IMG/VR virus record: IMGVR_UViG_3300045971_000354
Span: 79,464 to 143,463 of that record
From: a virus
Strand: one strand, 5' to 3'
DNA: 64,000 bases
Shown: positions 5,834-46,872 of the stretch, piece by piece
How positions within the stretch are numbered: the first letter of the stretch is position 1
How the letters are laid out: each line of letters begins with the position of its first letter
Notes under the pieces: model-generated
What the model was told of the DNA's origin: nothing
Database searches by the model: none
What the model saw: the letters and a program-made list of their open reading frames with translations, nothing else
Translations under genes and position numbers: made by a program

Positions 5834-5843
5834 TTAAGTTCTC

Positions 5844-6128: not shown

Positions 6129-6140
6129 TATGTACCTACT

Positions 6141-7403: not shown

Positions 7404-7428
7404 TTATATTCCTTGTTGATGTATTACT

Positions 7429-7457: not shown

Positions 7458-7463
7458 GTAAAC

Positions 7464-7481
7464 AAGGGCCTTTCGGCCCTT
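7464..7481 (-). terminator. Hairpin terminator after MoxR gene
   Basis: A 7-bp GC-rich stem (AAGGGCC / GGCCCTT) with a GAAA tetraloop lies three bases after the stop at 7484. The downstream U-run is short and broken, so it may be leaky. The promoter for the next gene follows at once. Confidence 0.6.
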
Positions 7482-7483
7482 TC

Positions 7484-12456: not shown

Positions 12457-13319
12457 TATGCTAGTGCTGCAAACAAGTGCATCTGAGTTTGCATAATGAG
12501 TCCATTTTGCATACAGTACTGCCCAACATACTTGTGATTAGCTTCGTTCTTGGCCATATTTAAAAGGCCGGGCTCCCACCAAGAAATTACTTCATCTACA
12601 GTACTTCGTTCTGCTATACTGATTGCGCCCTTTTCAGCACGTAACAGTTTAATCTTTTGAGGGAAGTCGTTGTACACATTCATCGGAGAACAGTAAATAT
12701 CCTTACCTGTGTTAGCTTTCCATTCCAATGCCCAGTCAGGGACTGTGTTGTACGGAGTATTGGGATCTGCACTAATAACAAACTTTAAAACATTTGCTCG
12801 TTCTAAGATTGTCTTGCCTGGTTTTAGATACCGGGTAGGAGCTTTACCAAACTCTGCACATTTCGGTGAGCAAACAAGCGTAACACCTTCTGGTACCACT
12901 GTGTCGGGAATACCGTTGCTTTCGACTTGAACTGCTTTGAATACATCGCGTTGCTTATACATAAAATCTGTAATGTTTTCTTGCAACAATGGTTCGCCAC
13001 CTGTCATTACCAATACAATATTAGGAAATAACCCTGTATATGGATTTTGTGGAACTGCCCATTCTGGTGCAGTCTGACCTTTGTTAGTCCAATATGCTTT
13101 GATAGTCTCATCCATCTTATCTGCAATCTGATCAAACGTCATCCAATCGCCGTCGTCAAAGAATGTGTCGCAGAATGAGCAATCTAAATTGCACTTTGCA
13201 AGGCGGATGAATAACGCAGGCATACCGGCATACGGTCCCTCTCCTTGCAGCGTGAAGAACATTGACGTAACAAATAAACTATCTTTAGGTGCGTCTCGAA
13301 AAAACTTCTTTCCGATCAC
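12456..13319 (-). CDS. queE: QueE, 7-carboxy-7-deazaguanine synthase (radical SAM)
   Basis: 287 residues from a GTG. The substrate-binding N-terminus SMFFTLQGEGPYAG is followed by the QueE-type cluster motif C43-x3-C47-x2-C50 (KCNLDCSFCDTFF), then MTGGEPLL. QueE converts carboxytetrahydropterin to 7-carboxy-7-deazaguanine (CDG) using a 4Fe-4S cluster, SAM and Mg. The start is uncertain: an AAGGAG lies 7 bases before an in-frame ATT at 13337, which would add six residues (start FGTNEV). That fits the ribosome site better than the GTG. FolE, QueD-like and DpdA genes lie in the same leftward block, which links the enzyme to DNA modification. Confidence 0.9.
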   Translation of the reverse strand: MIGKKFFRDAPKDSLFVTSMFFTLQGEGPYAGMPALFIRLAKCNLDCSFCDTFFDDGDWMTFDQIADKMDETIKAYWTNKGQTAPEWAVPQNPYTGLFPNIVLVMTGGEPLLQENITDFMYKQRDVFKAVQVESNGIPDTVVPEGVTLVCSPKCAEFGKAPTRYLKPGKTILERANVLKFVISADPNTPYNTVPDWALEWKANTGKDIYCSPMNVYNDFPQKIKLLRAEKGAISIAERSTVDEVISWWEPGLLNMAKNEANHKYVGQYCMQNGLIMQTQMHLFAALA

Positions 13320-16453: not shown

Positions 16454-16833
16454 GAAGCCTTCAACGCTTCGATTGTAATGATCTTAGAAATCTCAGTCCC
16501 AAGGTCCATGTCGTCATGTATAACATACAATCCAATACCCGAGGTATCCTTGCGACGATTATACATTTGTGTTTCGATAATTGTACCGCCACGTGCTTTA
16601 ATAACTTTAAATCGAATTGCTTGCTCAGACGCAATTTCGTCTGCTCGAGCAGGTTCTAGCTGTAGCCCTTGTACTTTATTCGCCCCACTTGTATTAGGAT
16701 TAATATCGCTATTCAACCAGTTACGAACTCGTTGTTTAAATGTCATCGGTTTCTTTTCCGCGGTAATTGTATTATAATACTTTGGTTCGTATTCTGCTTT
16801 TGCAGAAGAAACTCCGATTAATTGTCCGTTCAT
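16450..16833 (-). CDS. Phage protein of unknown function
   Basis: 127 residues from an ATG that overlaps the FolE stop (ATGA); an in-frame ATG four codons upstream lies inside folE. A central basic stretch (MTFKQRVRNWLNS) is followed by a C-terminal beta-rich part (IRFKVIKARGGTIIETQMYN). No family recognised. Confidence 0.6.
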   Translation of the reverse strand: MNGQLIGVSSAKAEYEPKYYNTITAEKKPMTFKQRVRNWLNSDINPNTSGANKVQGLQLEPARADEIASEQAIRFKVIKARGGTIIETQMYNRRKDTSGIGLYVIHDDMDLGTEISKIITIEALKAS

Positions 16834-17528
16834 CTTGGTGCCCATCCTTGTTGTAATGCAATGTTATCAAAAAACTCTTTCTTTACGCTAGCATCTTCTT
16901 TAAAAGCACCTTTAAGTACAGTTGTTTGTGTTAGCGAACTATGCGCCATAATGCCCCTATTCTCGCAGCATCCATGTGTTGCTTGAATATAGACTGCTAC
17001 GTTGTCGCTGCCAGTCGCTTTGCTAATCTCTCTAGCGATATCATTACAGAGTTCCTCTTGTAAAGTACCACGGCGAGCACACCACTGAGCAATACGAGAA
17101 TACTTGCTAAGACCAATGAGCTTTTGAGCGGCAATAATACCAATATAAGCAACGCCGTTAACAGGCTGATGATGATGTGAACACATAGAACGGAGCTCAC
17201 TACGTACAACCAACATACCTTCGTATCTATCTTGGCTATCGTTTGGAAAAGCCGTTGCATCTGGTTCTCTTTCATATCGTCCACTCATTACCTCATTAAA
17301 GTACATTTTTGCAAGGCGTTTTGCTGTGCCTTTACTATTAGGATCGGTTTCACGATCGATCAGAAGTGCATCGAGTACACTTTCAAATGCTGTAGTTGCT
17401 TCTCCGATTAATCTGGCTTTATCCATTTCTGAAACATATTCAGAAATATTATCGCCTGCCCAGAATCGCTTATTCTGCGAACGCATGTGATCGCGAATTA
17501 CCTGTGAAAGGTTTTTACTATTTTCCAA
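16830..17528 (-). CDS. folE: GTP cyclohydrolase I
   Basis: 232 residues from a TTG start with GGAGA upstream. The zinc-site segment MCSHHHQPVNGVAYIG, then GLSKYSRIAQWCARR, then YIQATHGCCENRG, matches FolE: in the E. coli enzyme Cys110, His113 and Cys181 bind zinc. FolE opens GTP to dihydroneopterin triphosphate, the first step of folate and of 7-deazaguanine synthesis. With QueE, QueD-like proteins and DpdA in this window it most likely feeds base modification of phage DNA. A candidate sigma70 promoter lies at 17573-17601. Confidence 0.92.
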   Translation of the reverse strand: MENSKNLSQVIRDHMRSQNKRFWAGDNISEYVSEMDKARLIGEATTAFESVLDALLIDRETDPNSKGTAKRLAKMYFNEVMSGRYEREPDATAFPNDSQDRYEGMLVVRSELRSMCSHHHQPVNGVAYIGIIAAQKLIGLSKYSRIAQWCARRGTLQEELCNDIAREISKATGSDNVAVYIQATHGCCENRGIMAHSSLTQTTVLKGAFKEDASVKKEFFDNIALQQGWAPR

Positions 17529-20613: not shown

Positions 20614-20642
20614 AGTATAGTATATTTTACGTTATTTGTCAA
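20614..20642 (-). promoter_or_regulatory. Consensus sigma70 promoter, predicted leaderless transcript
   Basis: TTGACA and TATACT, 17-base spacer, minus strand. The -10 ends six bases before the ATG at 20607. The -35 lies within the last codons of dpdA. Confidence 0.85.
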
Positions 20643-22278
20643 GCAAATCTACAAGATTTTGCAGCTTTTCATCTTCGGGGTCTTCCAAATCAACTTCATT
20701 AGATTTGGTAACATTTTCTACTTCGAACAAATTCATAAACTCGTTTTCAGCATTTCCGCCCTGCATTCTAGAACCTTCAAGTGCTTTTAAGAAAGGCGTT
20801 GCTTGATCGATTAGTGCAAACGCATCTGCTTTAGTTGTAGTATTAAATAATTCTTCAATAAAGCGGTCGAAATACAAAATGTTTCGTGGAACCCAATCGC
20901 TATATTCATCACTAGCCGCATCTTTACTTCCTAATTTATTCCAATGTTTCCATTTAATAGTATCACGAGTTTTTGCAATTTCGATATCCATTAATTGTTG
21001 AGCACGTTGAACAGCTTTAATATGGCATTCGACATTATGCCCCATCATCAATGCATACGCAAAGCTATCCCAGGAAGTCTTATTAGGAATCTTATTAAGT
21101 TTATTAAGCTTTGGCGGAACATGATAGTGCGATACATTTAAGTGATCAAACTTGACAAGTTTCCCGTCTTTGCCTGTTAATTCGGCATCTGTTTTGCGTT
21201 CGCCTAAATCGTAGTAGCAAATATCGCCTACGGTTAACCGACGTCCAGTCTCGCTTTCAAACGGGAACGGTATGTCGGAACCGGAAAGGGCTTTGTTGTC
21301 GAATCCTTTGTCCATAATAACGCTCCAACGCTTTGTAGTGTGTTGCGCGTTTGTGTAGACAAGTCCGTGCGCCGTTGCGATGAATGGGGATGCGCAGTCA
21401 AAAGAGATGGTAAGTTCTTCATTGATATGTTTCCTGATTTGTCTTTGAATTAAGGTTAAGTAACAACTCCAATCTAATTGAGCAGTGCCCAAGAAGTGGA
21501 TCCAATTTTTGCCTTTCAGCAAACCATCTTCACGCAAGGTCATAAGACGCTTTAACGTAATATCCATTTTGCACATGTTGGCGCCTCCGAATGCCCAACC
21601 TTCGGCAGCTTTATCGCCCCAAACCGCAGGATCACTAAACTCTTTAACGCCATTGTACCAATCTTCTGCAGACTGCCAGTCCCATCCTTGCAACACGTTA
21701 AGGAACTTTGTTTGTCCTAGCCGGTTCTTTAGGAAATACTCGTTGTTAAACTTTGTCTTATCCAAACAGTCTTGGACCGACTTTAGTCCAGTCTTCGGAC
21801 TGTGATTGTGATCACACGCCCAGGTTGGGACGTCAAGCATCATTGACCAATCTGCTGTTAGCTCAAGCCAATTTAGAATGTCGTCGCGGGTTTTGTTTGC
21901 CTTAACTCCTTCGAAGTCTAGCCAATCAAATTTTAGAACGCCTTTACCAATTTGGTATCCGCCGGAGTCTCCGAGAATCATAGTGTTCCCACGATCACGT
22001 TGTTGGATCATTGACTCCTGCGTCATACTCTTTGTAAGATCTAACTGTGCGTGGCCCGCAGAGTAAAGACCATATTTGTATGTGAAATATCCCTGTTCAG
22101 GATTTAAGAAGTTCATACCTTCGATTCCGCGATCAAAGCCGGCGGGAATACGATTTTTTGGAACAAACTCTTCTAGTCGCTGTTTAGCAACATAGGTACT
22201 ATAGAAGCTAGAGATTGCTGGAAGAAATACTGCGTAATCTCTCTGTAGAGGGGTTAAATTAACTGGTGGATTTGTCAT
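20632..22278 (-). CDS. dpdA: DpdA-like guanine transglycosylase for 7-deazaguanine insertion into DNA
   Basis: 548 residues. A TGT-family (beta/alpha)8 barrel is indicated by LGDSGGYQIGKG, with D104 at the position of the catalytic-face Asp, by VLQGWDW, GWAFGGAN and FDCASPFIATAHG (D294). TGT enzymes exchange guanine for a 7-deazaguanine base; the DpdA branch does so in DNA. The protein is longer than bacterial Tgt (~375), with an extended C-terminus, and lacks a recognisable Tgt zinc-ligand cluster, consistent with a phage DpdA rather than a tRNA enzyme. Which subfamily it belongs to I cannot tell. It is next to the clamp and polymerase genes, fitting post-replicative modification. Confidence 0.82.
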   Translation of the reverse strand: MTNPPVNLTPLQRDYAVFLPAISSFYSTYVAKQRLEEFVPKNRIPAGFDRGIEGMNFLNPEQGYFTYKYGLYSAGHAQLDLTKSMTQESMIQQRDRGNTMILGDSGGYQIGKGVLKFDWLDFEGVKANKTRDDILNWLELTADWSMMLDVPTWACDHNHSPKTGLKSVQDCLDKTKFNNEYFLKNRLGQTKFLNVLQGWDWQSAEDWYNGVKEFSDPAVWGDKAAEGWAFGGANMCKMDITLKRLMTLREDGLLKGKNWIHFLGTAQLDWSCYLTLIQRQIRKHINEELTISFDCASPFIATAHGLVYTNAQHTTKRWSVIMDKGFDNKALSGSDIPFPFESETGRRLTVGDICYYDLGERKTDAELTGKDGKLVKFDHLNVSHYHVPPKLNKLNKIPNKTSWDSFAYALMMGHNVECHIKAVQRAQQLMDIEIAKTRDTIKWKHWNKLGSKDAASDEYSDWVPRNILYFDRFIEELFNTTTKADAFALIDQATPFLKALEGSRMQGGNAENEFMNLFEVENVTKSNEVDLEDPEDEKLQNLVDLLDK

Positions 22279-29045: not shown

Positions 29046-29219
29046 TTATCTCTTTATTACGTTGGTAGGTTTTTTCTTCTTTGCTTTGCTACTCGTTGCC
29101 CCTGGGCCACCATTTAAAAATCCGTTTCCGTAGGCGCCTGTTGCAACGTTGCTTGCAATATTTGCAGATGAGATAGCTCCTTCACTTGCGGATTCTTTGA
29201 ATAGTTCTTTTATTTTCAT
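29046..29219 (-). CDS. Small basic phage protein (57 residues) with MKIKEL N-terminus
   Basis: 57 residues: MKIKELFKESASEGAISS, a Gly/Asn-rich middle, and a Lys-rich tail (SSKAKKKKPTN). It overlaps the previous stop as ATGA. It shares its first residues with the next gene upstream (MKIKELIVE). The common short amphipathic start may be a targeting signal. Confidence 0.65.
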   Translation of the reverse strand: MKIKELFKESASEGAISSANIASNVATGAYGNGFLNGGPGATSSKAKKKKPTNVIKR

Positions 29220-29599
29220 TTCTTACTCTTCTTCATCCAATTTGGAGTTGGACTATGCTTGTGTGTATCTTCGGGCTCGGAACTTTTAGACCAAGGTGTA
29301 ACTCGTTTATGATCAGACGGTACAGTATTATACGCTGCCTGCATCATATTATCTTCTTCTTTTGTATAAGGATGTGTTGTATTATATTTTTCTACCCAAC
29401 TCGACGCATCTACACCATCAATTTTTTTAGTGTCTTGACCATGCGCCATTGCAACAGCCATTCCTATTCTATTCATATGATATATACGATCGTACCCACC
29501 GGTATCACGTGCACGGGACACGCCCTTCTGCACCGCAACATGGTGGTCATGCATCTTTCCCTCGGGAGCGGTTTCTACAATAAGTTCTTTAATCTTCAT
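29216..29599 (-). CDS. Conserved phage protein with MKIKEL N-terminus
   Basis: 127 residues, His/Lys/Asp-rich (MHDHHVAVQKGVSRARDTGG; HMNRIGMAVAMAHGQD). No characterised family. The MKIKELIVE start matches the 57-residue neighbour. ATGA-type overlaps link it to both neighbours. Possibly an internal virion protein; inference only. Confidence 0.6.
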   Translation of the reverse strand: MKIKELIVETAPEGKMHDHHVAVQKGVSRARDTGGYDRIYHMNRIGMAVAMAHGQDTKKIDGVDASSWVEKYNTTHPYTKEEDNMMQAAYNTVPSDHKRVTPWSKSSEPEDTHKHSPTPNWMKKSKK

Positions 29600-29883
29600 A
29601 CTGGTTTTTCACCTGTTAGTCCCGGTCTACTAAACCAAAGTTTGATGTATTCATCAGATCCTGGCTTAATATTATGTTGACGCATGAGTTCAACCTTGCT
29701 TACTTCATTAGTTGTATTTATAGGTTTTTGTTTAGCCTTGTATTCTGCAAGTCTTGCTTCAGCACCTAACCCGCCCATTAACTGGCCAATTTTTAGTTCG
29801 TGTATAGGATCATCGGGAGCAAGATAACAATCGTCGTCGCTATCTTTGCTTAGGTTATCACTAGTTATGTAGTATTGCTTCAT
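29596..29883 (-). CDS. Small phage protein of unknown function
   Basis: 95 residues with an acidic N-terminal half and a basic, Pro-ended C-terminal half (VELMRQHNIKPGSDEYIKLW). The region resembles a conserved segment of other marine phages. Overlaps the giant gene stop by four bases. Confidence 0.6.
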   Translation of the reverse strand: MKQYYITSDNLSKDSDDDCYLAPDDPIHELKIGQLMGGLGAEARLAEYKAKQKPINTTNEVSKVELMRQHNIKPGSDEYIKLWFSRPGLTGEKPV

Positions 29884-32800
29884 TTCTGCTTTAGTTGTTC
29901 TAGTAAGCTAGCGATTTGAGTTTCCCATCCTTCGCCAATTTTAACACCTTTTGACTCTACGCTTTCTGCACCTACTAAGTCACCTGCTTTTGCCCCACGC
30001 TTCTGATTGCGTAGTTGTCCAGCTGTTCCTAGCTTGTTCTTATCAGATCCGGAAAATGCACTCTTAGGTAGCATTGCTTCGGATTTTTTACCAGTAGCAG
30101 CATCGTGTCTAGCTTGCATTTTAGCAGTAAATGCAGGAGTTGCTGTTGACTTACTTTTCGTGATATGTGGACTATTCTTTTGAGTATTGCCCGGTAGCGA
30201 TCTAGTCATTACTCCCGTTGCTGCTGCAATTGGAAATGATTCGGTTTTCTTTGGCTCTTCCTTTTTAGGAATGCTCGACGGAATAACAGAACGTGATTGA
30301 CGTGCTGCTGTCTTACCTTGCGAGTTTTGTACTGCTTTTGCTAATCTCAGTTTAGCAGAAGTTGACTCTGCTATATTTTCTGATATACTTTTTCGAATAG
30401 TAATATCATTTGGTTTAGATAACATTAACATAGATAGTGCTTTATCAAGAGAAGTTGCATCAGGAAAAAACGCCGAAGTCATTATTAAATTACCATTATA
30501 CGATGCAAGAGGTTGTCGTGGCCATACATCTTCTGGATCATTGTTAAATTCTAATTGTATTATTTTTTTGTCAGTTGGCTCTCTATAAATCTTTGTAATT
30601 TGTTTAGGAGTTCTGAATCCGAATAATTCTGCGTTATCTTGTGATAATTGTAAGTTTAAAATAGATACTGATGTCCCTACATTAATCTGCATATTTTTAC
30701 GCTGATCTAATTTTTTAAATGTTTCTAGAAATTGTTTTCCCGAATCTACTACTTTCGAAATACCTTCGAACACAGCTGAACTTAGCCGCGTAAAATGTGT
30801 GTGTGGCCCAATTGGCACTCCGCATTTTCTCATCTCCGGAATAAGCGATTTTTGGACATAATTAACAATTTCGTCTACAGTTAATTCTTTTACATAGAAT
30901 GCAGTATACGATTCGGCCATTCTAGGATCGCCTTTTAATTTTAATGCAGCATCTACTTGCTTTGCGTGTATCTTTTCTTCAGCACTTCGCTTTCCATTTA
31001 CTCTATTAATACCTTTTCGTAATGAAGTAGGAGCAGGAGAATCTTTAAGATCCTTCTTGTACTTCAGTAGCTTATCAATAGTAAGTTCGGATATCTTACC
31101 TTCACCCATTGGCACTTTAACTCCGCGCTTCTGTAATTCTGCTTGCAACGCTTGCAGCTTGTTTGGTGCACGGGCAATAGCATTGCGAATATCGCCTGCT
31201 ATCTTGCTAGGTAATTTACTTAACACATCATTTACGATCTGTTCAGCGTGACCTGCTTGTTGTCCGATGGCTGGATTCTTAGGAGACTTTGCTACCGGCT
31301 CGTCGTCATAATCATCCTCTTCTCCGGATGCTTCTAACTCGCTTAGATAATTTCTAAAGTCTTGTTTCGCTTTAATCCACAACTGTGCCTTGCGAGCTAA
31401 TTCTTGATCGCCGATCTTCTGTCCCATTTGTGCAAGAATTTCGGGTAACTGATCTGCTAGTGCACTAAAGTTTTTAGGAAGTGTTCCTAGAAAATCATTT
31501 AACGGTGCAGCATGTCTCGGACTTTGTTGCGCCAAGTGGCGTAATTCTTTACCTAACTTGTTAAAGTAAAAATTATTGTACCAACGAGATGCAGCACCAG
31601 CGGCAACCATTTGAAATCCTTTTAGATCTCCTTTACTTGCATAAAACTGTTTTGCCATCTGTTTCATTGTTGCATACAATTGAAGAACTGGCTCCCCGAT
31701 ATCATTTGAAATTGCGCGAAGTGTAGATTTTAATTCTGGACCCTCATCGACAATATAGTTACCTATTCCAACTCCTGCCATCCTGTCTTGGTATTCTTTC
31801 ACGGTATGAGTTATTATTTTATTTTTCAATGACCACTCGCTGAATTTTAGCCCTAACATTGTTTTAAATTTTTCTAGGTCGTTGATTGTTGGAAAAAATA
31901 ATACAGTTTTGAGTAAGTCGCCTTCTACTGAATTACCTTCTGGAAATTGTTTCTTAACACCGTTTATTTCAAAAATTACCTTACCAGAAGTATACCTAAG
32001 TAATTTATATGGTTGATCAAAATGTGCAACACTTAATAGGTGTGCAGGCAACATTGAAGTTATCGAAGTGTATACATACGATTTGCCTACTATCGGAGCA
32101 TTACTATATATTTTTAAGAAATTTTGTAAATTTTTGTAATCGGCGCTGTTTTCAAATAACTTAGGAGTTTTTAGTAGTTCTTGTCGTAGGTCCTCTTCTT
32201 GCTCTTCCCATATTGGCTCTAATGGAATATTATCAAAATCTTCAGAAATAATTGCCTGGAAATTAGTTAAGTGCGGCATAGTTAGCGCATTAAACAATCG
32301 CATCTCTGCAACTGGTGATCCTGCTGGTGTTACTGCCGGAGCAGCAGGCGCCGCAGGCTGTTGCGGAATATCTTGTACTCCCATCCCTTTCTTTGTTAGG
32401 TCCATTAAGTGCTTAATCCAATCAGCCCCTAACTTTTTAATATCAAATCCTTGGCTCCACACTTGAAATTGTTGCTCAGGAGTTGCATTTGGATCTTTTA
32501 AAATATTGCGAAGCTTAGTAAAGCTCATTCCAGTTCCGCGAGGTGTAACTTCTAAACTAACCTTGACATGTTCGTATCCTTGGAACTTATTAACAGCTTT
32601 CATTAATGCATTAGCAATGTTCATATTAGCGCGGTCTTCACCCACCATAATAATAATGTTGTCGTATCTTGGCGGCTTGCCCGGCAATGGATTAATTAAC
32701 TCATGCTTGATTTTTTGTATTAACGATCCGCTATCTTGTACCGTACTAATATTGCTTGCATACTGTGGATACATTTTATGCCAGGTCTGTACTTTAACCG

Positions 32801-35537
32801 CTGGCGGAATAGGATCGTCTTTGCCTTCTGCATTTCCAATAAACAAATACGGATCTCCACCTACCTCTTTAGCTTTGTTAATTGTGTAATCAAATAATTG
32901 CTCGTGACCAATGTGTCCTACAAAACTTCCAATAGCAACTACTGCGGTTTTACTAGAATTTTCACGAGGGCGTTCTGTTCTTGCAGTTGCCTTTGCTGCT
33001 AGTTTATCTGCAATAACTTTACGTTGTTCGGTACTAGTTACTTTAACAGGTCCAAGGCGAGTGTTTAACACTATGCCTTCGTAGTCTTGACCTAATATGT
33101 CTTTACCTACAATATTAGGATCTTCGGCAATTGCCTTTTCTAATGCAAGTTTAACTGGCTGTAATGCCGCAGCAACATCTTGCTTTCGCTTTAGACTACC
33201 GGGACTCTTATCAGCTAACATTGCCTTAAATTGTGATATGTTTTCTATTGGAGGAACTAACGCTGTTACATCTAACGCCTCGTTTTGTGTTAAGCTATTA
33301 TCAATAAACATCACACTACCTAACTTTCCTACGCTAAGTAGTTCTTTTATGAACTCGTTTGCATTTGGTAATTCTTCGCCAGTATCTGCTTCTACTACTC
33401 GAAACGGAACAAGTGCAAGTTGGATACCTGATGGTAACTTGTCATAATGTATTCCTACAAACTTTAGCTTTCCTTCCGGAGTTTCAGTTGCAAACGGCAA
33501 ATATAATACTTCACAAGTTACTTGCTTGTTAAGTAAAAATTCAGGACCTAACTTGCTGTCGACTAATTTAACAGCATTCATCATCTCAGTGAATAAATCG
33601 TCAAACAGTTGAGCTCTTCCTAAAATTTCTGGATCAGTTGTTCCTTTCTTTTGATGATAGTCTACAAACCCTGCTTGATACCGAGGTGGTGTGTTACTTG
33701 TGCCCATGAAAGGCTTCCCGGCAGCATCCTTTCCAAAGCGCCCGCCAAATCCGTCGACTTTAACATTTAGTGGCATATTCTCCAACTTAAATGCACCATT
33801 GCCGTCGTGCAACTCATCTAACAAATCTAAGAAATCTATAGTCTTTAGATCTCGTAGATGTGGCATTCCTTTTCTGAGTTGTGCTTTTACTTCTGGTTGC
33901 GGAATAGGATCCTTATTATGTTCAGTTCCGATAGCCTCTGCAACCGGTTGCTTTGCAGCAGACTTTGCTTTGAACTGTTCTTCGTAATTCATTGCTTGCT
34001 GCACTGCTTGCTTCCTTGTTTCTTGTCCATTTGCGAGTTTTAATGGCTTATGACCGTCACCGCCTAATACCATTATATCAAGTGCTGCTAGCTTTGTATC
34101 ACGATCCCTAACTGGATCATCTTTTGTAATCATTTGGGCTTGCTGCCCAAATAAAATATCAATAAAATGTTGTGCAACTGCTTCGCGTTGTGTATCATCT
34201 AAATATCTGTTCATTAGATCTATTGTACCAACAAAGCTTTGTTGTAATTTTAAATCCTGAGCTTTTGGTTTTACACCGTAAACTTTCTGAAACTGCGATG
34301 AAAGATTTTGATCGTAGCTGCGTTGTGAAGGTTCGAGCAACTGCATAACAGGAATGCCGTCTTTTTCCATCGGTTGATTTGTTTCCGGATCGATGTATGG
34401 CTGATACTTTGAACTTAGACCACCGCCTTGTGCGCTTGTTACTGCAAACGAATAATCTGCATCAGTAACTGGTTCAGGGCTAATTTTTGTGCTCTTCTTT
34501 AAAACACGAGCAACATATTTTGTACTTGCTTGTGATGTAGGCAATGCACGGTTAATCCATTTGTGGAATACACCCTTGATGCCTGATGCCATATCGTCGT
34601 AATGAGAACTATGACTGTATGCAAACCAGTCAGATGGTTCATTCTTTTCTTTGTTATATGGTCCAAGCTCGTAGTCAATTTGAATCTTAACTGGCGGCTC
34701 ATCTAGCATCCATAATGCAGATAGCGATGAATTAAACCCGACAAATGTTCCATTACCGATCTTTTGACCTACAATAGATTTCAACCATGCAGCTACATCG
34801 TCGCCAATTTCTTGATCAACTTGCGTGTCGATGTCGCCGACTTTTACTTTCTTTAGCTTATTCATAAAGTCTTGAGTGCTAACACTCTTGACATCGAAAA
34901 ACTGTAAACTGCTTCCACTGAACATTTTTCCAGATGCGATTAGCTTCGGATCCCAAATAGGACGTCCGTATGTTGCAGCAAACGAATCATTTTGCGCAGA
35001 AAGTAGTTCTCTGATCTTTCCTACCATGAAATCACGATTATGCAATTTCAAATCAATTTCTTCGGCCTCGTGTTCTCCGGGCATACCTTGCCAACCGGGG
35101 CTTGTGTTTGATAAATTTCCACCTTCGCTAATTGCTTTTGCACTTAAAAATTCAGGATGCAGTTTATTAAACTCTCGCATAATAATGCCCGCGGCGATGT
35201 GAGCATCGTTTTCAGTTTGTGATCCTGTACTTGGATCCATTTTATCACCGTCAACGAATTGCTTTGCATGATGTAACTCGTGAGCTAATGTACGTAGACT
35301 ATCTACTGGTTGACGATTACCTATAGCTAACTGAATTGTATAATTGTCTGGATTAAACTGCCCCATTGTTGGTTGCTGGGAATCTTGAATCTTCTTCTTC
35401 AAGATAATAGTCGGTAGCTTATCTAATTTTGTAATTTTCTTTGCAATAGGTAAGAATACGCGCAATATATCGTTGAAATCGTATTCACGAGATTCAGTTA
35501 TCTTATTAAACTGAGTAACAAAATCATTTAATTTCAT
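29880..35537 (-). CDS. Giant multidomain protein: metallopeptidase-like, ligase-like and HxGH nucleotidylyltransferase-like domains
   Basis: 1885 residues. (1) ~25-125: HELHH at 86-90, a zinc-peptidase motif. (2) ~550-840: a covalent nucleotidyltransferase (RNA/DNA ligase) arrangement, with K593-V-D-G as motif I, CEVLYLP (~675-681), Y-E820-G-I-V-L as motif IV and VKV (831-833) as motif V. (3) ~865-1045: a cytidylyl/adenylyltransferase-like fold with G-H875-I-G-H878 and a later SFTKLR. (4) ~1100-1710: two diverged copies of a helical/beta unit (around 1148-1230 and 1619-1708, both with FFP and an ML.L end). (5) a basic disordered C-terminus. Start MKLNDF resembles neighbours' MKIKEL. Possibly an injected or processed virion protein. 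Substrates are unknown. Confidence 0.75.
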   Translation of the reverse strand: MKLNDFVTQFNKITESREYDFNDILRVFLPIAKKITKLDKLPTIILKKKIQDSQQPTMGQFNPDNYTIQLAIGNRQPVDSLRTLAHELHHAKQFVDGDKMDPSTGSQTENDAHIAAGIIMREFNKLHPEFLSAKAISEGGNLSNTSPGWQGMPGEHEAEEIDLKLHNRDFMVGKIRELLSAQNDSFAATYGRPIWDPKLIASGKMFSGSSLQFFDVKSVSTQDFMNKLKKVKVGDIDTQVDQEIGDDVAAWLKSIVGQKIGNGTFVGFNSSLSALWMLDEPPVKIQIDYELGPYNKEKNEPSDWFAYSHSSHYDDMASGIKGVFHKWINRALPTSQASTKYVARVLKKSTKISPEPVTDADYSFAVTSAQGGGLSSKYQPYIDPETNQPMEKDGIPVMQLLEPSQRSYDQNLSSQFQKVYGVKPKAQDLKLQQSFVGTIDLMNRYLDDTQREAVAQHFIDILFGQQAQMITKDDPVRDRDTKLAALDIMVLGGDGHKPLKLANGQETRKQAVQQAMNYEEQFKAKSAAKQPVAEAIGTEHNKDPIPQPEVKAQLRKGMPHLRDLKTIDFLDLLDELHDGNGAFKLENMPLNVKVDGFGGRFGKDAAGKPFMGTSNTPPRYQAGFVDYHQKKGTTDPEILGRAQLFDDLFTEMMNAVKLVDSKLGPEFLLNKQVTCEVLYLPFATETPEGKLKFVGIHYDKLPSGIQLALVPFRVVEADTGEELPNANEFIKELLSVGKLGSVMFIDNSLTQNEALDVTALVPPIENISQFKAMLADKSPGSLKRKQDVAAALQPVKLALEKAIAEDPNIVGKDILGQDYEGIVLNTRLGPVKVTSTEQRKVIADKLAAKATARTERPRENSSKTAVVAIGSFVGHIGHEQLFDYTINKAKEVGGDPYLFIGNAEGKDDPIPPAVKVQTWHKMYPQYASNISTVQDSGSLIQKIKHELINPLPGKPPRYDNIIIMVGEDRANMNIANALMKAVNKFQGYEHVKVSLEVTPRGTGMSFTKLRNILKDPNATPEQQFQVWSQGFDIKKLGADWIKHLMDLTKKGMGVQDIPQQPAAPAAPAVTPAGSPVAEMRLFNALTMPHLTNFQAIISEDFDNIPLEPIWEEQEEDLRQELLKTPKLFENSADYKNLQNFLKIYSNAPIVGKSYVYTSITSMLPAHLLSVAHFDQPYKLLRYTSGKVIFEINGVKKQFPEGNSVEGDLLKTVLFFPTINDLEKFKTMLGLKFSEWSLKNKIITHTVKEYQDRMAGVGIGNYIVDEGPELKSTLRAISNDIGEPVLQLYATMKQMAKQFYASKGDLKGFQMVAAGAASRWYNNFYFNKLGKELRHLAQQSPRHAAPLNDFLGTLPKNFSALADQLPEILAQMGQKIGDQELARKAQLWIKAKQDFRNYLSELEASGEEDDYDDEPVAKSPKNPAIGQQAGHAEQIVNDVLSKLPSKIAGDIRNAIARAPNKLQALQAELQKRGVKVPMGEGKISELTIDKLLKYKKDLKDSPAPTSLRKGINRVNGKRSAEEKIHAKQVDAALKLKGDPRMAESYTAFYVKELTVDEIVNYVQKSLIPEMRKCGVPIGPHTHFTRLSSAVFEGISKVVDSGKQFLETFKKLDQRKNMQINVGTSVSILNLQLSQDNAELFGFRTPKQITKIYREPTDKKIIQLEFNNDPEDVWPRQPLASYNGNLIMTSAFFPDATSLDKALSMLMLSKPNDITIRKSISENIAESTSAKLRLAKAVQNSQGKTAARQSRSVIPSSIPKKEEPKKTESFPIAAATGVMTRSLPGNTQKNSPHITKSKSTATPAFTAKMQARHDAATGKKSEAMLPKSAFSGSDKNKLGTAGQLRNQKRGAKAGDLVGAESVESKGVKIGEGWETQIASLLEQLKQK

Positions 35538-35917
35538 ATCTTATACTCGCCTTTGATAATGTCTTTGTGGTGATGGTCTGCTAGGCGTTTGCATAACTCG
35601 ATAAAAAACTCTTTAGTAAATGTATCAGCTGGATGCCCCTTCACTTCTTTATCCTTGTAATATTCTAAGCAGCCTTCTTTGGCCATTGGCAACCATCTCT
35701 TCCAATCGTGCCCGCTTATTTTGTCATCCTTCTTGTGCGCTGCTTTAATTTCCTTTGCATGTGGGAGGAAATGTTTCTTGTGTAGATCGTCGCTATCCAA
35801 TATATGCCAAAATACAGCATCTGCAATTTTGCGTTCTTCTTCTTTTCCTAGGGTATCGGGATTACTATCCGGGTCAGAATCGTGTTTTATATTGCCAAAA
35901 AATTCAAATAGTCTCAT
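35534..35917 (-). CDS. Phage protein of unknown function
   Basis: 127 residues beginning MRLFEFF, echoing the MK[IL]..[LF] starts of the downstream genes. Charged, with many His and Lys (HILDSDDLHKKHFLPHAKEIKAAHKKDD). No family recognised. Overlaps the giant gene start by four bases, so both are probably translated together. Confidence 0.6.
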   Translation of the reverse strand: MRLFEFFGNIKHDSDPDSNPDTLGKEEERKIADAVFWHILDSDDLHKKHFLPHAKEIKAAHKKDDKISGHDWKRWLPMAKEGCLEYYKDKEVKGHPADTFTKEFFIELCKRLADHHHKDIIKGEYKI

Positions 35918-36453: not shown

Positions 36454-37119
36454 CTAAGTATCTCTAAGAACGAACTCCTCTGCTCTCTTTACATACTTGC
36501 CTAAAAACAAGCTTACTAACAATAAGTGCGATTTATCATGTACATATAAGAAGGGCCCTTGATAAAATCGTCGCCCTTTCCCGTCTAACCACTGTAATGT
36601 AGTCTTGCTTGCTTGGATAGTTTCTGGATAGTTATCTAACCATTTGAGAAAACTAGCCCGTTGGTGCTCAGGAAATGCAGGTCTTATATATACTCTATGC
36701 TTAAATTTACTCTGCGGAAGTTTGTTACACAACACCTGCGCTGATTTTTCTTGCAATGTTGCTAACTCTGTATCATTTGCAGGTGCAGATATACTTTTGA
36801 CCCAATATGCCAACTCTTTCTTTATTTCTTCAAATTGTACAGGGTCATTTAGATACATTGTTATTGTATCATGTTCTACTCTGAGTTTTAGCCCTATATT
36901 TAGATATGGCTCTACATCATTTACAAATTGCAGCAATGTCGGTTTGTTAATATGGACAGTTCGACTATTCCCAGCACTTGCATCTAATGTAGAGCCTGTA
37001 CAAAACAATTTAGTTTTTTCAAGGCCCCAGTATCGTAAAAACGATGCTCCGTAGGTTTTTAGCTCTATACGGTAAGCCCACTTACCGTAATAAAGCTTAT
37101 TTGTCTGAAAGACTTTCAT
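36454..37119 (-). CDS. Phage protein of unknown function
   Basis: 221 residues, basic and aromatic-rich (KWAYRIELKTYGASFLRYWG at ~13-32). No known catalytic motif. Resembles conserved marine-phage hypothetical proteins. Its start overlaps the end of the ClpA-like gene by 23 bases. Confidence 0.6.
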   Translation of the reverse strand: MKVFQTNKLYYGKWAYRIELKTYGASFLRYWGLEKTKLFCTGSTLDASAGNSRTVHINKPTLLQFVNDVEPYLNIGLKLRVEHDTITMYLNDPVQFEEIKKELAYWVKSISAPANDTELATLQEKSAQVLCNKLPQSKFKHRVYIRPAFPEHQRASFLKWLDNYPETIQASKTTLQWLDGKGRRFYQGPFLYVHDKSHLLLVSLFLGKYVKRAEEFVLRDT

Positions 37120-39382
37120 CTTCAGTTTCTACCGCAGATACCTTAGTCTTTGCAGACAATACTTCAATGAATTTAAAGGTAAATGCATCGTCAACAGCAT
37201 CAATTTCAACGATTCCGCCAGCAACTAGTTTTCCGAACAAAATTTCCTTGCTCAATGGCTTCTTAATATGTTCATCAATAGCACGGCCTAGCGGTCTTGC
37301 ACCCATCTTCTTGTTAAAGCCCTTCTTAATTAACAGTTCAACGGCATCGGGGGTTGGCTTGATATGAACATTCTTATCCTTAATTTGCGCATTTAACTCG
37401 TCAATGAACTTCTTAACAATCTTAATCATTGTAGTCTGATCAAGTTTGCCAAACTGGATGACTCCGTCTAACCGATTGCGGAATTCAGGCTTAAAGAATG
37501 TGTTAACAGCAGCGTTAATTTCACCGTCTCGCTCTTGACTACCAAAACCCACGGCGTTTTTCTCTTGATCAGATGCACCTAAGTTACTTGTTAAAATAAC
37601 AATAGCATTCCGTCCGTCTGCTTTCTTACCGTTACTTCCAGTTACAAAGCCGTTATCCATCAACCCAAGCAAGATGTTGCTTACACTAGGATGTGCTTTT
37701 TCAATTTCATCAAGTAACAAGACGCAGTTAGGATGTTCTTGTAGTTTAGTTACAAGTTGTCCGGCATTATCTTCAAATCCGACATACCCGGGAGGAGCCC
37801 CAATGAACTTTGCAACACTATGTGACTCCTGGAACTCGCTCATGTCAAATCGGACTAGTTCAACTCCTAGTGATGCAGCAAGTACCTTTGCGGTTTCTGT
37901 CTTCCCGCAGCCCGTCGGGCCGACGAACAAGAAATTACCAACAGGCTTATTATGCGACTTCAGTCCAGCTTGTGAGATATAGATCTTATCTAGCAGAATA
38001 TCAATAGCTTTGTCTTGGCCGAATACTTTGCCGTGCATATTCTTATCAAGATTCTTAAGATTTTGATTTTCTTTTGCAGCAACTTGTTCAAGCGGCAAAT
38101 TAGCAATCTTAGCAACTTCAAAAACAATTTCGTCGTGATCAACAATCCCGTTCTCTTCATCACGGACCTTAAAACGAGCACATGCACTATCAATCAGATC
38201 GATTGCTTTGTCGGGCAATTTCTTGTCGGTCATATATTTGACAGAATATCGCACACTATCAATGACTGCTTGGTTAGTGATCTTTACACTGTGATGCTTT
38301 TCGTAATATTTCTTAAGGCCCTTGATAATTTTAATAGCCATTGCTTCGCTTGGTTCATCAATTACTACCCGTTGGAACCGGCGCATTAGTGCACGATCCT
38401 TTTCAAAGTGCTTGCGGAACTCGTCCCAAGTAGTTGATGCAATAACTTTTAATGTGCCCTTTGACAATGCAGGCTTTAGCATATTGCTCATATCGTTTGA
38501 GCTTCCACTAACTGCACCGGCACCACTCATCATGTGTGCTTCGTCAATAAACAGAATACAATTCTTTTTCTTTTCCAACGCAGTAATGACTAGCTTCAGA
38601 CGTTCTTCAAAGTCGCCACGATATTTAGATCCAGCAAGCATCGCTCCGATATCTAGACTATAAACAACATGTTCTTTGATATACTTTGGAACTGAACCTT
38701 CTACAATCTTACGAGCAAGCCCTTCTGCAATTGCAGTCTTTCCTACGCCAGGCTCGCCGATCATCATTACGTTTGACTTTTGTCGACGTGCAAGAACAAG
38801 TTGAATTTCTTCGATTTCTTTCTCACGACCGATTACTGGATCAATCTTCTTTTGCTTAACTTTAGCATTCAAGTTTGTGCAAAACTGTACAATAACCTTT
38901 TCGAGATTTGCATGAACTGCCTCTTCGTTTACTGAGTCCATGTCATCTGCTTTTTCTTTTGTGATAAATTCTAGGAACTCGTCTTTATCAATGTTCGCTT
39001 CTCGCATATAGTATGCAGCATGGCTTTTCTTTTCCGAGAACAAACTAATAAAGCAATCAATAGGTTCAATAATTGAGCGACCAGTAAACAGTACCTGAGT
39101 AAACGCACGATTCAACATACGCTCCATTGAGTGGGTTTTTCGTGGTTTAATATCCGGGTCAGTAGTTACGATATCAGTAAACTTTTCATCGATATGCTGT
39201 TCTACCGCAGCTTTTAGCGACTTTACATTAGTGCCGAACTCGTCTAACAGCTTTTCAAACTTTGCATCTGTAACAAGCCCGTAAAGGAAATGTTCTAGAG
39301 TGATATATTCGTGATTGCGCTTCGATGCGGATTTTACAGCTTGTTCGAAAATTACTTCCAAGTCTGAATTTGGTTCTAACAT
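37097..39382 (-). CDS. clpA: ClpA-type AAA+ unfoldase (Hsp100)
   Basis: 761 residues, matching E. coli ClpA (758). An N-terminal Clp repeat domain (~1-140), D1 with Walker A GEPGVGKT (209-216) and FIDEAHMM, and D2 with Walker A GPTGCGKT (488-495) and LLDEIEKAH. No long middle domain, so ClpA rather than ClpB. At 611-614 a VGFG loop stands where ClpA has the IGL loop that docks ClpP, suggesting it could recruit host ClpP. ClpA unfolds and feeds proteins to ClpP. No phage ClpP is seen here, so use of the host protease or action as an unfoldase alone are both possible. Confidence 0.9.
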   Translation of the reverse strand: MLEPNSDLEVIFEQAVKSASKRNHEYITLEHFLYGLVTDAKFEKLLDEFGTNVKSLKAAVEQHIDEKFTDIVTTDPDIKPRKTHSMERMLNRAFTQVLFTGRSIIEPIDCFISLFSEKKSHAAYYMREANIDKDEFLEFITKEKADDMDSVNEEAVHANLEKVIVQFCTNLNAKVKQKKIDPVIGREKEIEEIQLVLARRQKSNVMMIGEPGVGKTAIAEGLARKIVEGSVPKYIKEHVVYSLDIGAMLAGSKYRGDFEERLKLVITALEKKKNCILFIDEAHMMSGAGAVSGSSNDMSNMLKPALSKGTLKVIASTTWDEFRKHFEKDRALMRRFQRVVIDEPSEAMAIKIIKGLKKYYEKHHSVKITNQAVIDSVRYSVKYMTDKKLPDKAIDLIDSACARFKVRDEENGIVDHDEIVFEVAKIANLPLEQVAAKENQNLKNLDKNMHGKVFGQDKAIDILLDKIYISQAGLKSHNKPVGNFLFVGPTGCGKTETAKVLAASLGVELVRFDMSEFQESHSVAKFIGAPPGYVGFEDNAGQLVTKLQEHPNCVLLLDEIEKAHPSVSNILLGLMDNGFVTGSNGKKADGRNAIVILTSNLGASDQEKNAVGFGSQERDGEINAAVNTFFKPEFRNRLDGVIQFGKLDQTTMIKIVKKFIDELNAQIKDKNVHIKPTPDAVELLIKKGFNKKMGARPLGRAIDEHIKKPLSKEILFGKLVAGGIVEIDAVDDAFTFKFIEVLSAKTKVSAVETEDESLSDK

Positions 39383-39383: not shown

Positions 39384-39872
39384 TTATTTCCTTTTAGATT
39401 TTTTAATACCGAGAGCCCATTTTAACGGGCTGACCCTATCCTGAAACACTACACCTTCCAAATGATCAAGTTCGTGCAAAAAGCATTTACATTCGTATCC
39501 TGTAAATTCTGATTCTACAAACTCGCCCTTAGCATTCTGCCATCGTGCCTTAATTGCCTTTGGTCTTTTTATTTTAACATAAACTCCGGGAAAACTCAAG
39601 CATCCTTCTTCTAAATCTTCGATGTCGTCTGTATTTGCGATAACTTCTGGATTAAAGAAAGCGATACTATTTTCAGGTTTAAACCGATGCCCCATTACAA
39701 ATACTCTAGCCTCAATGCCCACTTGATTTGCCGCAAGCCCGATGCCGTCGTGCTTAATCATTGCATCTTTCATATCTTGTTCAAGTTGTTCTGGGTCCGT
39801 TGACGGACTAGTGAAATCGAACTCGGGCATTCTCTTTCGAAGAATTGGATCTGGGAATTTTACAATTTTCAT
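39384..39872 (-). CDS. def: Peptide deformylase
   Basis: 162 residues with the three family motifs in order: [19 protein letters not shown] and [11 protein letters not shown]. Cys in motif 2 and both His of motif 3 (metal ligands), plus the catalytic Glu, are present. It removes the N-formyl group from new proteins. Phage deformylases are known in marine viruses and are thought to favour rapid turnover or maturation of host or phage proteins. It lies in a tight cluster with a ClpA-like unfoldase and a DnaJ-type co-chaperone. Confidence 0.93.
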
Positions 39873-40684
39873 TTTATATCTAATTCTCTTAGTTTAATTT
39901 GTTGGTCTTCAGTTAGCATTGGAATACGCATATTAAGTCTAACTAGTATTCTTCCCCTTCTCGAAGGATCATTAAAGTTAGGCATTCCGTACCCCTGTAA
40001 TGCTAGCACTGAATTGTTTTGTGTACCTGCAGGAATAATTGCTTCTAAATACTTGTTATCGATACTGGATAGATTAATAGTCTTTCCGAGCATTGCATCT
40101 ATGCAGCTTAGTTCGATTTCTTGAACTAGATCATCGCCCTGCCGAGTATATGTGTGATGTTCTGAAATTTGCACATTTAGCATTATATCTCCACGAGGGA
40201 GATTCGAGATCGAATCATCGCCCATTCCTGCTAACCGTAGTGTTTGGTTAGTATGGATGCCCCTTGGAATATTAATACTTAGGGTTTGATCGCGTCCGCT
40301 TGGCAATGTTATATTTACAACCATTTCTTTACCATTAAACGCATCTTCTAATGATATAACTGTTTGTAGTTGTAATGCGCGATTTTGTTGCCGTTGTGGA
40401 TGACGACTAAACCCAAACAAATCCCCAAACGGACTTCCGTGCCCGAACATTGACTCGAAGTCACCGGGGAACCCGTGGTGATGCGACTGCTGTCGAGGAT
40501 TATCGTGTTCTGCTCGTTTTTGTGGATCGCTTAGTGTAGCATAAGCTTCTTGAATTTCTTGAAACTTTGCAGTATCGCCGCCTTTATCGGGGTGATGTTT
40601 ACTCGCAAGACTGCGAAATGCTTTTTTGATTTCGTCTTCGGATGCTGATCTCTCAACTCCTAGGGTTTGATAATAGTCCTTCAT
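39869..40684 (-). CDS. dnaJ: DnaJ/CbpA-type Hsp40 co-chaperone
   Basis: 271 residues. A J-domain at the N-terminus has HPD at 31-33 (HHPDKGGD), followed by a Gly/Phe/His-rich linker (~70-95) and two C-terminal substrate-binding domains (~100-265). The zinc-finger domain of DnaJ is absent, so it is of the CbpA type. It should stimulate host DnaK. A sigma70 promoter ends 7 bases before the ATG, predicting a leaderless mRNA. With deformylase and ClpA downstream it forms a protein-quality-control operon. Confidence 0.9.
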
Positions 40685-45523: not shown

Positions 45524-45988
45524 TTATCCTTTTTTAAGTTCTGCTTCTGTTACACGTTTGCGTAGACTACTGCTACTAAACGAATGATCTCTACCATTAT
45601 ACACAATTTGTATGCCTCTTGCAAGGCATTCGGCTTTTCCAGTAAATTCCTTATGCTCATATTCGACACCTAATATTCGCACATCAACCGGCAGGATAAG
45701 CAGCAAGTCTATGACATCTTTCTCCGTTTGATATACAACTACTTCGTCTACATTACGATTGGTACTTAATTGAATTTGTCGTTCTACAATACTCTGAACA
45801 GGCGGATTCTTCGTATCCGGTCGATCAATAGTTGGATCAGTTTGTAACGCTGCAATCAAGTAATCGCAATGATTCTTTGCTTCTGCAAGCATTGCGATAT
45901 GACCTGCATGAAAAAGATCAAATGTAGAGAACGTGATTCCAATCACAAGTCCTTGCTGTTTTAGTTCTTTAATTTTGTTAAATATCAT
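45524..45988 (-). CDS. Cytidylyltransferase-family nucleotidyltransferase
   Basis: 154 residues. An N-terminal HxGH motif (TFSTFDLFHAGHIAML) and a C-terminal SSSSLRKR fit the glycerol-3-phosphate/phosphoethanolamine cytidylyltransferase family (TagD/Tct type). The intermediate VEYEHKEFTGKAE is also typical. It makes a CDP- or ADP-linked product from an alcohol phosphate; which substrate is not apparent. Phage members of this fold are known. A second, divergent HxGH domain is inside the 1885-residue protein. Confidence 0.82.
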   Translation of the reverse strand: MIFNKIKELKQQGLVIGITFSTFDLFHAGHIAMLAEAKNHCDYLIAALQTDPTIDRPDTKNPPVQSIVERQIQLSTNRNVDEVVVYQTEKDVIDLLLILPVDVRILGVEYEHKEFTGKAECLARGIQIVYNGRDHSFSSSSLRKRVTEAELKKG

Positions 45989-46238: not shown

Positions 46239-46405
46239 TAAACAAGTTCCTCGACAATCCCCAGCCCCTCTGCTAGAATAAGGAAGATGCCGCCTGCATA
46301 TATTGCACCATAACAGAATGCAGCACCTGCTACGATGCGAAGTACACTCTTGACAAGAGATATATAGAAGTGACCTTTACTTGTATCTTTAGGTTGAATA
46401 TTCAT
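46238..46405 (-). CDS. Small membrane protein (55 residues)
   Basis: 55 residues: a polar N-terminus (MNIQPKDTSKGHFYISL) then two short hydrophobic stretches (LRIVAGAAFCYGAIYAG; IFLILAEGLGIV). It fits exactly between neighbouring genes with ATGA and TAATG overlaps, which supports a real gene. Function unknown. Confidence 0.65.
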   Translation of the reverse strand: MNIQPKDTSKGHFYISLVKSVLRIVAGAAFCYGAIYAGGIFLILAEGLGIVEELV

Positions 46406-46872
46406 TTTACGTAGATAATTTTATCGAAGCCTTCTGCTTCAGTTGGTTCTTCCCAGTTAGCTCGCATACTCTGCACAACTTCGGGAGGAATAGTTTTCCC
46501 CGGACGTGACGCAAGACGACGTTGCAGTTCCTTAGCTTCGGGAGTTTGAAACACGACTGCAATCATTTCGTATCCGCGCAACATGTTAAACTTTTTACGA
46601 CGTGCTACCTTTGTAGTAGAAGTTTGATCCCAAACGATATCAAGTCCTTGCTTTACTGCATCAACTACACTATCTGCCATTAGTTGAACCGCAGTTGGCA
46701 TATAATCTTTAAACACATCTGAATAGGTCTTACCTTGTTCTTTTGCGTGTTTCTCAACATGGCCGTCAGTAGATACTAGAACAGTTTTGTTCCAGTCAAA
46801 TGGCTGTTTTGCAATCCAGGTTGATTTCCCAGCACCTGGCACGCCTACTAAGATATATGCTGTTGGCTTCAT
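46402..46872 (-). CDS. Polynucleotide kinase-type P-loop kinase
   Basis: 156 residues. Walker A GVPGAGKSTWIAK (~9-21), lid region DQTSTTKVARRKKF and a C-terminal KIIYV beta strand resemble the kinase domain of T4 Pnk (5'-hydroxyl polynucleotide kinase) and related small AAA kinases. The 3'-phosphatase domain of T4 Pnk is absent. Proposed role is phosphorylation of DNA or RNA 5' ends, possibly repair of cleaved tRNA; the ligase-like domain at 29880 could be a partner. No proof of substrate. Confidence 0.72.
   Translation of the reverse strand: MKPTAYILVGVPGAGKSTWIAKQPFDWNKTVLVSTDGHVEKHAKEQGKTYSDVFKDYMPTAVQLMADSVVDAVKQGLDIVWDQTSTTKVARRKKFNMLRGYEMIAVVFQTPEAKELQRRLASRPGKTIPPEVVQSMRANWEEPTEAEGFDKIIYVK

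What the first reader, a model, noticed from the sequence alone, without database searches (positions are those of the whole stretch)
29880..35537. 1885-residue protein joining a zinc peptidase motif, a ligase-like core and an HxGH nucleotidylyltransferase
In order: HELHH (86-90); a KxDG-type ligase core (K593) with a properly spaced CEVLYLP, YEGIVL and VKV; then GHIGH (874-878) with SFTKLR; then two diverged copies of an unknown unit; then a basic tail. This domain order is not one I know. It suggests a nucleotide- or RNA-end-acting enzyme that is processed or injected with DNA, perhaps acting on tRNA, NAD-type substrates or proteins. A polynucleotide-kinase-like gene (46402) could supply 5'-phosphate ends for a ligase.
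Basis: partly seen in the sequence, partly recalled or inferred. Interest (0 to 1): 0.82.

Follow-up and report, generated by a model that had tools for sequence, protein, structure and literature searches.

The report
Capsid-packed multi-enzyme polyprotein of T4-like phages
A virus related to T4 makes one very long protein that joins a peptidase and three different nucleotide-transferring enzymes, and it carries the address tag and cut sites by which such viruses pack proteins into their heads, so the enzymes are probably cut apart there and shot into the bacterium with the DNA.

Summary
The ORF is real: 1885 codons on the MINUS strand (35537 to 29880), in a T4-like phage contig. The KxDG and GHIGH segments do lie in ligase-like and HIGH-nucleotidyltransferase folds.

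The main new result is how it is deployed. Relatives (202 IMG/VR loci, 80 fetched) begin with a short propeptide ending [I/L/V]-x-E|GGN (52/52 distinct peptides), and carry a second such site before the ligase domain (42/43). Such sites are 2.6-fold enriched in the variable C-terminal regions and depleted in the core. This fits the T4 gp21 prohead-protease motif and capsid-targeting propeptides. The pieces occur as separate genes in other T4-like phages, and flanking genes are fused on in relatives.

Best reading: a capsid-internal polyprotein, cut by gp21 and injected. Domains and family-wide sites are shown by computation. Packaging, cleavage and injection are strongly inferred. The target (RNA-end or NAD repair, or host-protein modification) is a guess. 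It is a new variant of the T4 internal-protein system; no fused copy turned up in 50,697 phage records.

The parts
29880..35537 (-). whole ORF, 1885 aa, ATG start at 35537
   Evidence: 100% match in its own contig, open frame
35493..35537 (-). residues 1-15: candidate capsid-targeting propeptide, MKLNDFVTQFNKITE|S
   Evidence: stand-alone zincins of relatives start MKIIDLLE|D, MRIQELLE|S, MKIVQLLE|S, MLLTQLFE|S, MRIVELVE|S
35124..35492 (-). residues 16-138: zincin-like peptidase domain (HELHH 86-90, E109)
   Evidence: invariant H86, E87, H90, E109; IrrE/PprI structure matches; ends in site ISE138|GGN
33936..35123 (-). residues 139-534: pol-beta-like nucleotidyltransferase (GSS 208, GDID 234, QIDYE 286); phrog_19290
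   Evidence: ends in site VAE534|A
32973..33890 (-). residues 550-855: ligase-like covalent nucleotidyltransferase core (K593, E676, E820, K832)
32346..32972 (-). residues 856-1064: HIGH-superfamily nucleotidylyltransferase (GHIGH 874, SFTKLR 1005); phrog_3041
32241..32303 (-). residues 1079-1099: propeptide-like element VAE|MRLFNAL...ISE| inside the chain
   Evidence: similar [RK][LI][FL]NAL elements in 20 of the relatives' chains, mostly after an x-A-E
31788..32174 (-). residues 1122-1250: first copy of the unknown unit
31098..31742 (-). residues 1266-1480: unit B, starting right after IVDE1265|GPELKST
   Evidence: all 10 B starts listed are preceded by [ILV]-x-E|G or S
30366..30917 (-). residues 1541-1724: unit C, holding the second copy of the unknown unit (1601-1726); ends in IAE1724|S
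   Evidence: stand-alone in L012 behind MKSWEFITE|D
29883..30365 (-). residues 1725-1885: basic tail with C-terminal peptide IGE1869|GWETQIASLLEQLKQK
   Evidence: similar [VI]-[SG]-E plus amphipathic end in many relatives
35534..35917 (-). upstream gene (127 aa, MRLFEFFG...); its homologue is fused to the front of the giant chain in L057 and L060 at ..KLME|GGN
29596..29883 (-). downstream gene (95 aa), overlaps the giant's end, conserved neighbour
29216..29599 (-). downstream gene (127 aa, MKIKELIVE|T); homologues start MRAxEFIxE; fused to the giant's C-terminus in L001, L044, L061, L073, L091

Best explanation
It is a capsid-internal polyprotein of a T4-like phage. The N-terminal propeptide (and perhaps the C-terminal one) draws it into the prohead core. 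The phage's own gp21 prohead protease then cuts after [I/L/V]-x-E at the joints. This would release a zincin peptidase (about 16-138), a pol-beta-like nucleotidyltransferase (139-534), a ligase-like plus HIGH-nucleotidyltransferase piece (535 to about 1078 or 1265) and accessory C-terminal pieces. These stay in the head and enter the host with the DNA, so the enzymes act before any phage gene is expressed. Shown by computation: domains, catalytic residues, family-wide sites, gene-fusion relations, presence of gp21 and gp23. Inferred: packaging, cleavage, injection. Guess: the enzymes mend or modify RNA ends or NAD-type nucleotides, or modify host proteins, as early counter-defence.
For: (a) Site 1: all 52 distinct N-peptides have [ILV]-x-E|GGN (P3 L33 I14 V5; P1 always E; P2 twelve kinds). 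Site 2: 42 of 43 have [ILV]-x-E just before the ligase part. (b) Sites in C-terminal regions: 109 against 41.7 +/- 5.8 in shuffles; core: 92 against 143. In the ORF itself 6 of 8 sites lie in the 19% outside defined domains, P about 9e-4, with boundaries set by me. Site 534 lies in model residues 392-410 (530-548), the low-confidence linker between the two folded parts. (c) The same genome has gp21 (phrog_207), gp23 (phrog_138) with a matching HLVE41|S, and a protein at the gp22 position with the highest site density of the genome. (d) T4 gp21 cuts at L/I-X-E, and internal-protein propeptides of 10-19 residues target the head (PMC9026906). T4 IPIII reads ..EFIAE|A in its record; homologues of the neighbour gene read MRAxEFIxE. 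(e) HIGH/NMNAT-like proteins were found by mass spectrometry in cyanophage virions (PMC10665884, PMC9602691). (f) The pieces are separate neighbouring genes elsewhere. (g) Folds.
Against: No virion proteomics for this phage or its fused relatives. The cleavage motif is short: 9 of 110 genes of this genome have a matching N-terminus. Relatedness makes the 52 peptides non-independent. Some stand-alone homologues lack a propeptide (M-GGN in Xanthomonas phage X1, Vibrio phiKT1024 and IME-SM1; S-SRM01 zincin; P-HM2 HIGH enzyme), so packaging is not universal. The pol-beta structure matches are individually weak (E 0.25 or worse). Some proposed P1' residues are D, T, R or M, outside the strict set. 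One of the 8 sites (716) sits inside the ligase fold and is probably not cut.
Confidence: 0.78

Rival explanations
1. A cytoplasmic multi-enzyme complex expressed after infection. The domains are fused so that they work together on RNA or nucleotides, and the [ILV]-x-E motifs are flexible-linker chance.
For: Some stand-alone homologues have no propeptide. The ligase-like and HIGH parts are fused in Vibrio phiKT1024 or adjacent in cyanophages and Xanthomonas phage X1, which suggests joint action.
Against: It does not explain 52/52 and 42/43 site conservation with a freely varying P2, nor 109 sites against 42 expected in C-terminal regions while the core is depleted, nor the EFIxE starts of the neighbour's homologues.
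Confidence: 0.14
2. A polyvalent protein in the sense of Iyer et al. 2017: injected whole, and processed by its own N-terminal zincin.
For: Zincin and pol-beta domains are typical of polyvalent proteins, whose zincins are proposed to process the chain (PMC5512222).
Against: Nearly all relatives have the same joints but no zincin in the chain; where found it is usually a separate gene further along, with its own propeptide.
Confidence: 0.07
3. Packaged as in the best explanation, but the domains are structural or inactive remnants, not enzymes.
For: C-terminal regions are low-complexity and vary freely; no OB domain follows the ligase core.
Against: The catalytic residues of all four domains are invariant or nearly so across relatives that have diverged to about 50-60% identity.
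Confidence: 0.06

Closest known systems
T4 internal proteins (IPI-IPIII) and Alt, processed by gp21
   Same: short N-terminal propeptide ending in an L/I-X-E type site; possible C-terminal propeptide as in Alt; genome has gp21, gp23 and a protein at the gp22 position
   Different: one chain with four enzyme domains and several internal cut sites instead of one small protein or one enzyme
Polyvalent proteins (Iyer et al. 2017, PMC5512222)
   Same: long multi-domain chains thought to be injected, with zincin and pol-beta NTase domains
   Different: gp21-type cut sites and a separate prohead protease of a T4-like head; the zincin is usually a separate gene
T4-like cyanophage 'cytidylyltransferase' / NMNAT-like proteins (virion proteins S-CREM2 ORF154 and S-SCSM1 ORF91; also S-SSM7, S-SRM01, Melnitz)
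   Same: HIGH domain; S-SSM7, S-SRM01 and Melnitz copies start with propeptide-like peptides ending LTE|A, ITE|A, IIE|A; the two named ORFs were detected in virions
   Different: no pol-beta-like, ligase-like or zincin part in the same chain
Xanthomonas phage X1 genes WEM34317-WEM34320
   Same: pol-beta-like, ligase-like and HIGH genes in one cluster
   Different: separate genes, no visible propeptides on the three
RlaP plus RNA ligase repair systems of jumbo phages (PMC7824862)
   Same: a pol-beta NTase paired with a ligase of the KxDG type
   Different: no match of our domain to any Pfam pol-beta family; a head-packaged form is not described there

Membership tests
T4-type capsid-targeted internal proteins | N-terminal propeptide of about 10-19 residues ending in L/I-X-E | tested here: met
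   P0001: 15 residues ending ITE|S; relatives mostly 13-20 residues, 52/52 with [ILV]-x-E, five of them V
T4-type capsid-targeted internal proteins | phage encodes a gp21-type head maturation protease | tested here: met
   phrog_207, E 2.5e-58
T4-type capsid-targeted internal proteins | protein found cleaved inside virions | not testable with these tools
   needs proteomics; only distant HIGH-type proteins are reported in virions
Polyvalent proteins | several effector domains of different biochemistry in one chain | tested here: met
   zincin, pol-beta-like, ligase-like, HIGH
Polyvalent proteins | embedded peptidase that releases the domains | tested here: inconclusive
   zincin in the chain here and in L011, but absent from the chain in nearly all relatives that keep the sites
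DNA/RNA ligase superfamily (covalent nucleotidyltransferases) | motifs I (KxDG), III (E), IV (EG) and V (K) in order, in a ligase fold | tested here: met
   invariant residues; Foldseek DNA ligase I, E 7e-4
DNA/RNA ligase superfamily (covalent nucleotidyltransferases) | OB-fold or other C-terminal ligase domain, as in DNA ligases and capping enzymes | tested here: not met
   the HIGH domain follows after one helix; hence 'ligase-like', not 'a ligase'
DUF6267 (PF19782), the KWDG neighbour in cyanophages | profile similarity | tested here: not met
   no Pfam match in P0001; hhalign probability 0.3% against a thin two-sequence profile
HIGH-superfamily nucleotidylyltransferases | HxGH and a downstream SxTxxR-type motif in the matching Rossmann-like fold | tested here: met
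   PPAT E 3.7e-4, FAD synthetase E 1e-3; phrog_3041 E 6.4e-14
Pol-beta-superfamily nucleotidyltransferases | hG[GS], DhD and a third acidic residue | tested here: met
   residues kept in 90-100% of 37 homologues, including Campylobacter, Vibrio, Xanthomonas and Stenotrophomonas phage copies
Pol-beta-superfamily nucleotidyltransferases | pol-beta palm fold | tested here: inconclusive
   most of the top 50 structure matches outside the zincin part are pol-beta-fold (CD-NTase, PolX, OAS, TUTase, CCA enzyme), but each is weak, E 0.25 or worse
IrrE/M78-like zincins | HExxH with a third acidic ligand and matching fold | tested here: inconclusive
   H86, E87, H90, E109 invariant; PprI/IrrE structure matches probability 0.97 and 0.80 at E 0.09-0.16; Pfam below cut-offs

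The most novel reading that the evidence does not exclude
T4-like phages of this environmental group use a modular polyprotein system for head cargo: effector genes with capsid-targeting propeptides fuse and split freely, the prohead protease cuts them apart at [ILV]-x-E joints, and the core cargo (pol-beta-like enzyme, ligase-like plus HIGH enzyme) is an RNA-end or NAD repair kit delivered at time zero of infection.
Probability: 0.35. Interest if true: 0.9.

Novelty: new variant of a known kind. Interest (0 to 1): 0.77.

Why it matters
T4 carries a few small internal proteins and Alt into the host, and the cargo of most T4-like heads is unknown. If this reading is right, a large environmental family of T4-like phages solves the cargo problem with a polyprotein cut in the head by the same protease that matures the shell. 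It would mean that a simple rule, [ILV]-x-E joints behind a short propeptide, can be used to list head cargo from sequence alone. It would also mean that nucleotide-end chemistry (three unrelated nucleotidyltransferase types) is delivered before any phage gene is read, which bears on how phages survive early RNA- or NAD-cutting defences. The virion-borne NMNAT-like proteins of cyanophages, so far unexplained, would fall into the same system.

Tried and rejected
- Whole-protein Pfam and PDB sequence searches gave nothing above cut-offs; only PHROGs and comparative genomics worked.
- Pol-beta part: no Pfam or PDB sequence match in 37 homologues. RlaP membership is therefore not claimed.
- DUF6267 as a relative of the ligase-like part: not supported.
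- A joint zincin/pol-beta alignment (A3) misplaced the stand-alone zincins. It was discarded; the second structure used A6.
- The search for the unknown unit C in IMG/VR found only the L012 contig again; the search with 1090-1500 found only the L048 and L011 contigs again.
- Paper searches for 'cytitidyltransferase' with cyanophage, DUF6267, and polyprotein with prohead protease found no description of such a system.
- Considered and set aside: an NAD-dependent ligase recharged by a fused NMNAT. It is attractive, but no domain Ia of NAD ligases is visible and nothing here tests it.
Full report
1. The observation. The ORF at 29880-35537 is on the minus strand and encodes 1885 aa. The window is G000:C1:79464-143463 of a 143,463-base virus record. 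Neighbouring genes look T4-like: sliding clamp, DNA polymerase, clamp loader and PhoH, read from their sequences. Elsewhere in the record are a major head protein (phrog_138) and a head maturation protease (phrog_207).

2. Domains. A model of residues 139-1070 with 47 relatives has mean pLDDT 87. Foldseek against PDB puts the KxDG part on human DNA ligase I (E 7e-4), archaeal DNA ligase and a tRNA-ligase adenylyltransferase domain, and the GHIGH part on phosphopantetheine adenylyltransferase (E 3.7e-4), FAD synthetase and NaMN adenylyltransferase. Catalytic residues are invariant. The HIGH domain follows the ligase core with no OB domain between, so 'ligase-like' is the honest term. A second model (16-530, pLDDT 88.6) gives a PDB list in which, outside the zincin part, most of the top 50 are pol-beta-fold enzymes, though each match is weak. 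The first 138 residues are a zincin with H86, E87, H90 and E109 invariant and weak IrrE/PprI structure matches. The two unknown units are confirmed as diverged copies.

3. The pieces elsewhere. In Xanthomonas phage X1 the pol-beta-like, ligase-like and HIGH parts are genes of one cluster. In Vibrio phage phiKT1024 the pol-beta-like gene lies a few genes from a 484-aa protein that by eye has a KxDG segment followed by a HIGH-like part. In Synechococcus phage S-SRM01 a 132-aa zincin sits next to the cytidyltransferase gene. In the window's own relatives the zincin is usually a separate ORF, or was not seen. The operon order around the giant gene is conserved. The upstream gene 35534 is fused to its front in L057 and L060, and the downstream gene 29216 to its end in five relatives. 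No record of 50,697 phages matched 80% or more of the protein; the best places covered 19% (also 101).

4. The deployment signal. T4's gp21 cuts after L/I-X-E; internal proteins carry 10-19-residue propeptides that target them into the prohead core, and Alt has propeptides at both ends (PMC9026906). In this family all 52 distinct N-peptides before the pol-beta domain end in [ILV]-x-E|GGN; P3 is L, I or V, P1 always E, P2 takes twelve different residues. Where the pol-beta part is stand-alone without a propeptide it starts M-GGN, so the mature start is the same. Just before the ligase domain 42 of 43 have another such site. All ten listed starts of unit B are preceded by one. In the C-terminal regions of 62 relatives there are 109 [ILV]-x-E-[AGS] sites against 41.7 +/- 5.8 in composition-keeping shuffles, while the folded core has 92 against 143. 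In this ORF 6 of 8 sites fall outside the domains (P about 9e-4 with boundaries I set). The site at 534 lies in the disordered linker 530-548. The phage's gp23 has HLVE41|S and the protein at the gp22 position has the highest density of such sites in the genome. Homologues of the neighbour gene 29216 begin MRAxEFIxE, close to T4 IPIII (EFIAE, read from its record).

5. Independent support. Proteins of the HIGH type were detected by mass spectrometry in virions of cyanophages S-CREM2 and S-SCSM1, and the papers cite the same for S-CBWM1 (PMC10665884, PMC9602691). I did not show that those particular ORFs are orthologues of this HIGH domain; they share the superfamily.

6. Cargo is modular. Relatives carry other modules in the C-terminal part, joined by GVAEG-like linkers: an HD domain of the SpoT kind (L048, HD_4 E 2.7e-17), a ParB_N domain (L056), a weak GNAT (L081); in L036 the zincin gene is fused to LysM and GH19 domains. 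This is what a delivered cargo set would look like.

7. Mechanism. Most likely: targeting to the prohead core, cutting by gp21, retention in the head, ejection with DNA, action in the first minutes. Shown here: sequence and model evidence only. Not shown: packaging, cutting, ejection, any activity. The natural guess for the core pair plus pol-beta enzyme is mending or modifying RNA ends or NAD-type nucleotides, by analogy with RlaP plus RNA ligase pairs in jumbo phages (PMC7824862) and NMNAT-like virion proteins; protein NMPylation is as compatible for the pol-beta part, which polyvalent-protein authors class with protein-modifying domains.

8. Limits. The motif is short and 9 of 110 genes of this genome have a matching N-terminus by this loose test; the argument rests on the family-wide pattern, and its members are related. 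Several distant homologues have no propeptide. The contig and most relatives are environmental, without isolates.

Noticed in passing
window 12456-13319, 16830-17528, 20632-22278: QueE-like, FolE-like and TGT/DpdA-like genes (judged by eye): probably a 7-deazaguanine DNA-modification pathway.
   Followed up: no
window 37097-39382: ClpA/ClpB-like AAA+ ATPase (761 aa), conserved a few genes upstream of the giant gene in most relatives; its role next to head cargo is unclear.
   Followed up: partly
window 39384-39872 and 39869-40684: Peptide deformylase-like and DnaJ-like genes, overlapping, next to the Clp-like gene (judged by eye).
   Followed up: no
window 45524-45988 and 46402-46872: A second, separate HIGH-type enzyme (phrog_7878) and a polynucleotide-kinase-like P-loop protein (phrog_2071, phrog_505).
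   Followed up: partly
L048, giant ORF at 1799-7564: SpoT-type HD domain (HD_4) inside the C-terminal part of a relative: possibly a head-delivered alarmone hydrolase.
   Followed up: partly
L036:7234-8520: Zincin fused to LysM and GH19 domains behind an ISE|S site.
   Followed up: partly
L005, L011, L029, L030, L056, L101, L018, L019, L020: A recurring CWKGYRKxGTKMKGGxRVNNCV-type module near C-termini, shared with cyanophage proteins; function unknown.
   Followed up: no
G000:C1:44172-44837: A 221-aa protein starting MKINQILE|D: another candidate head cargo gene.
   Followed up: no
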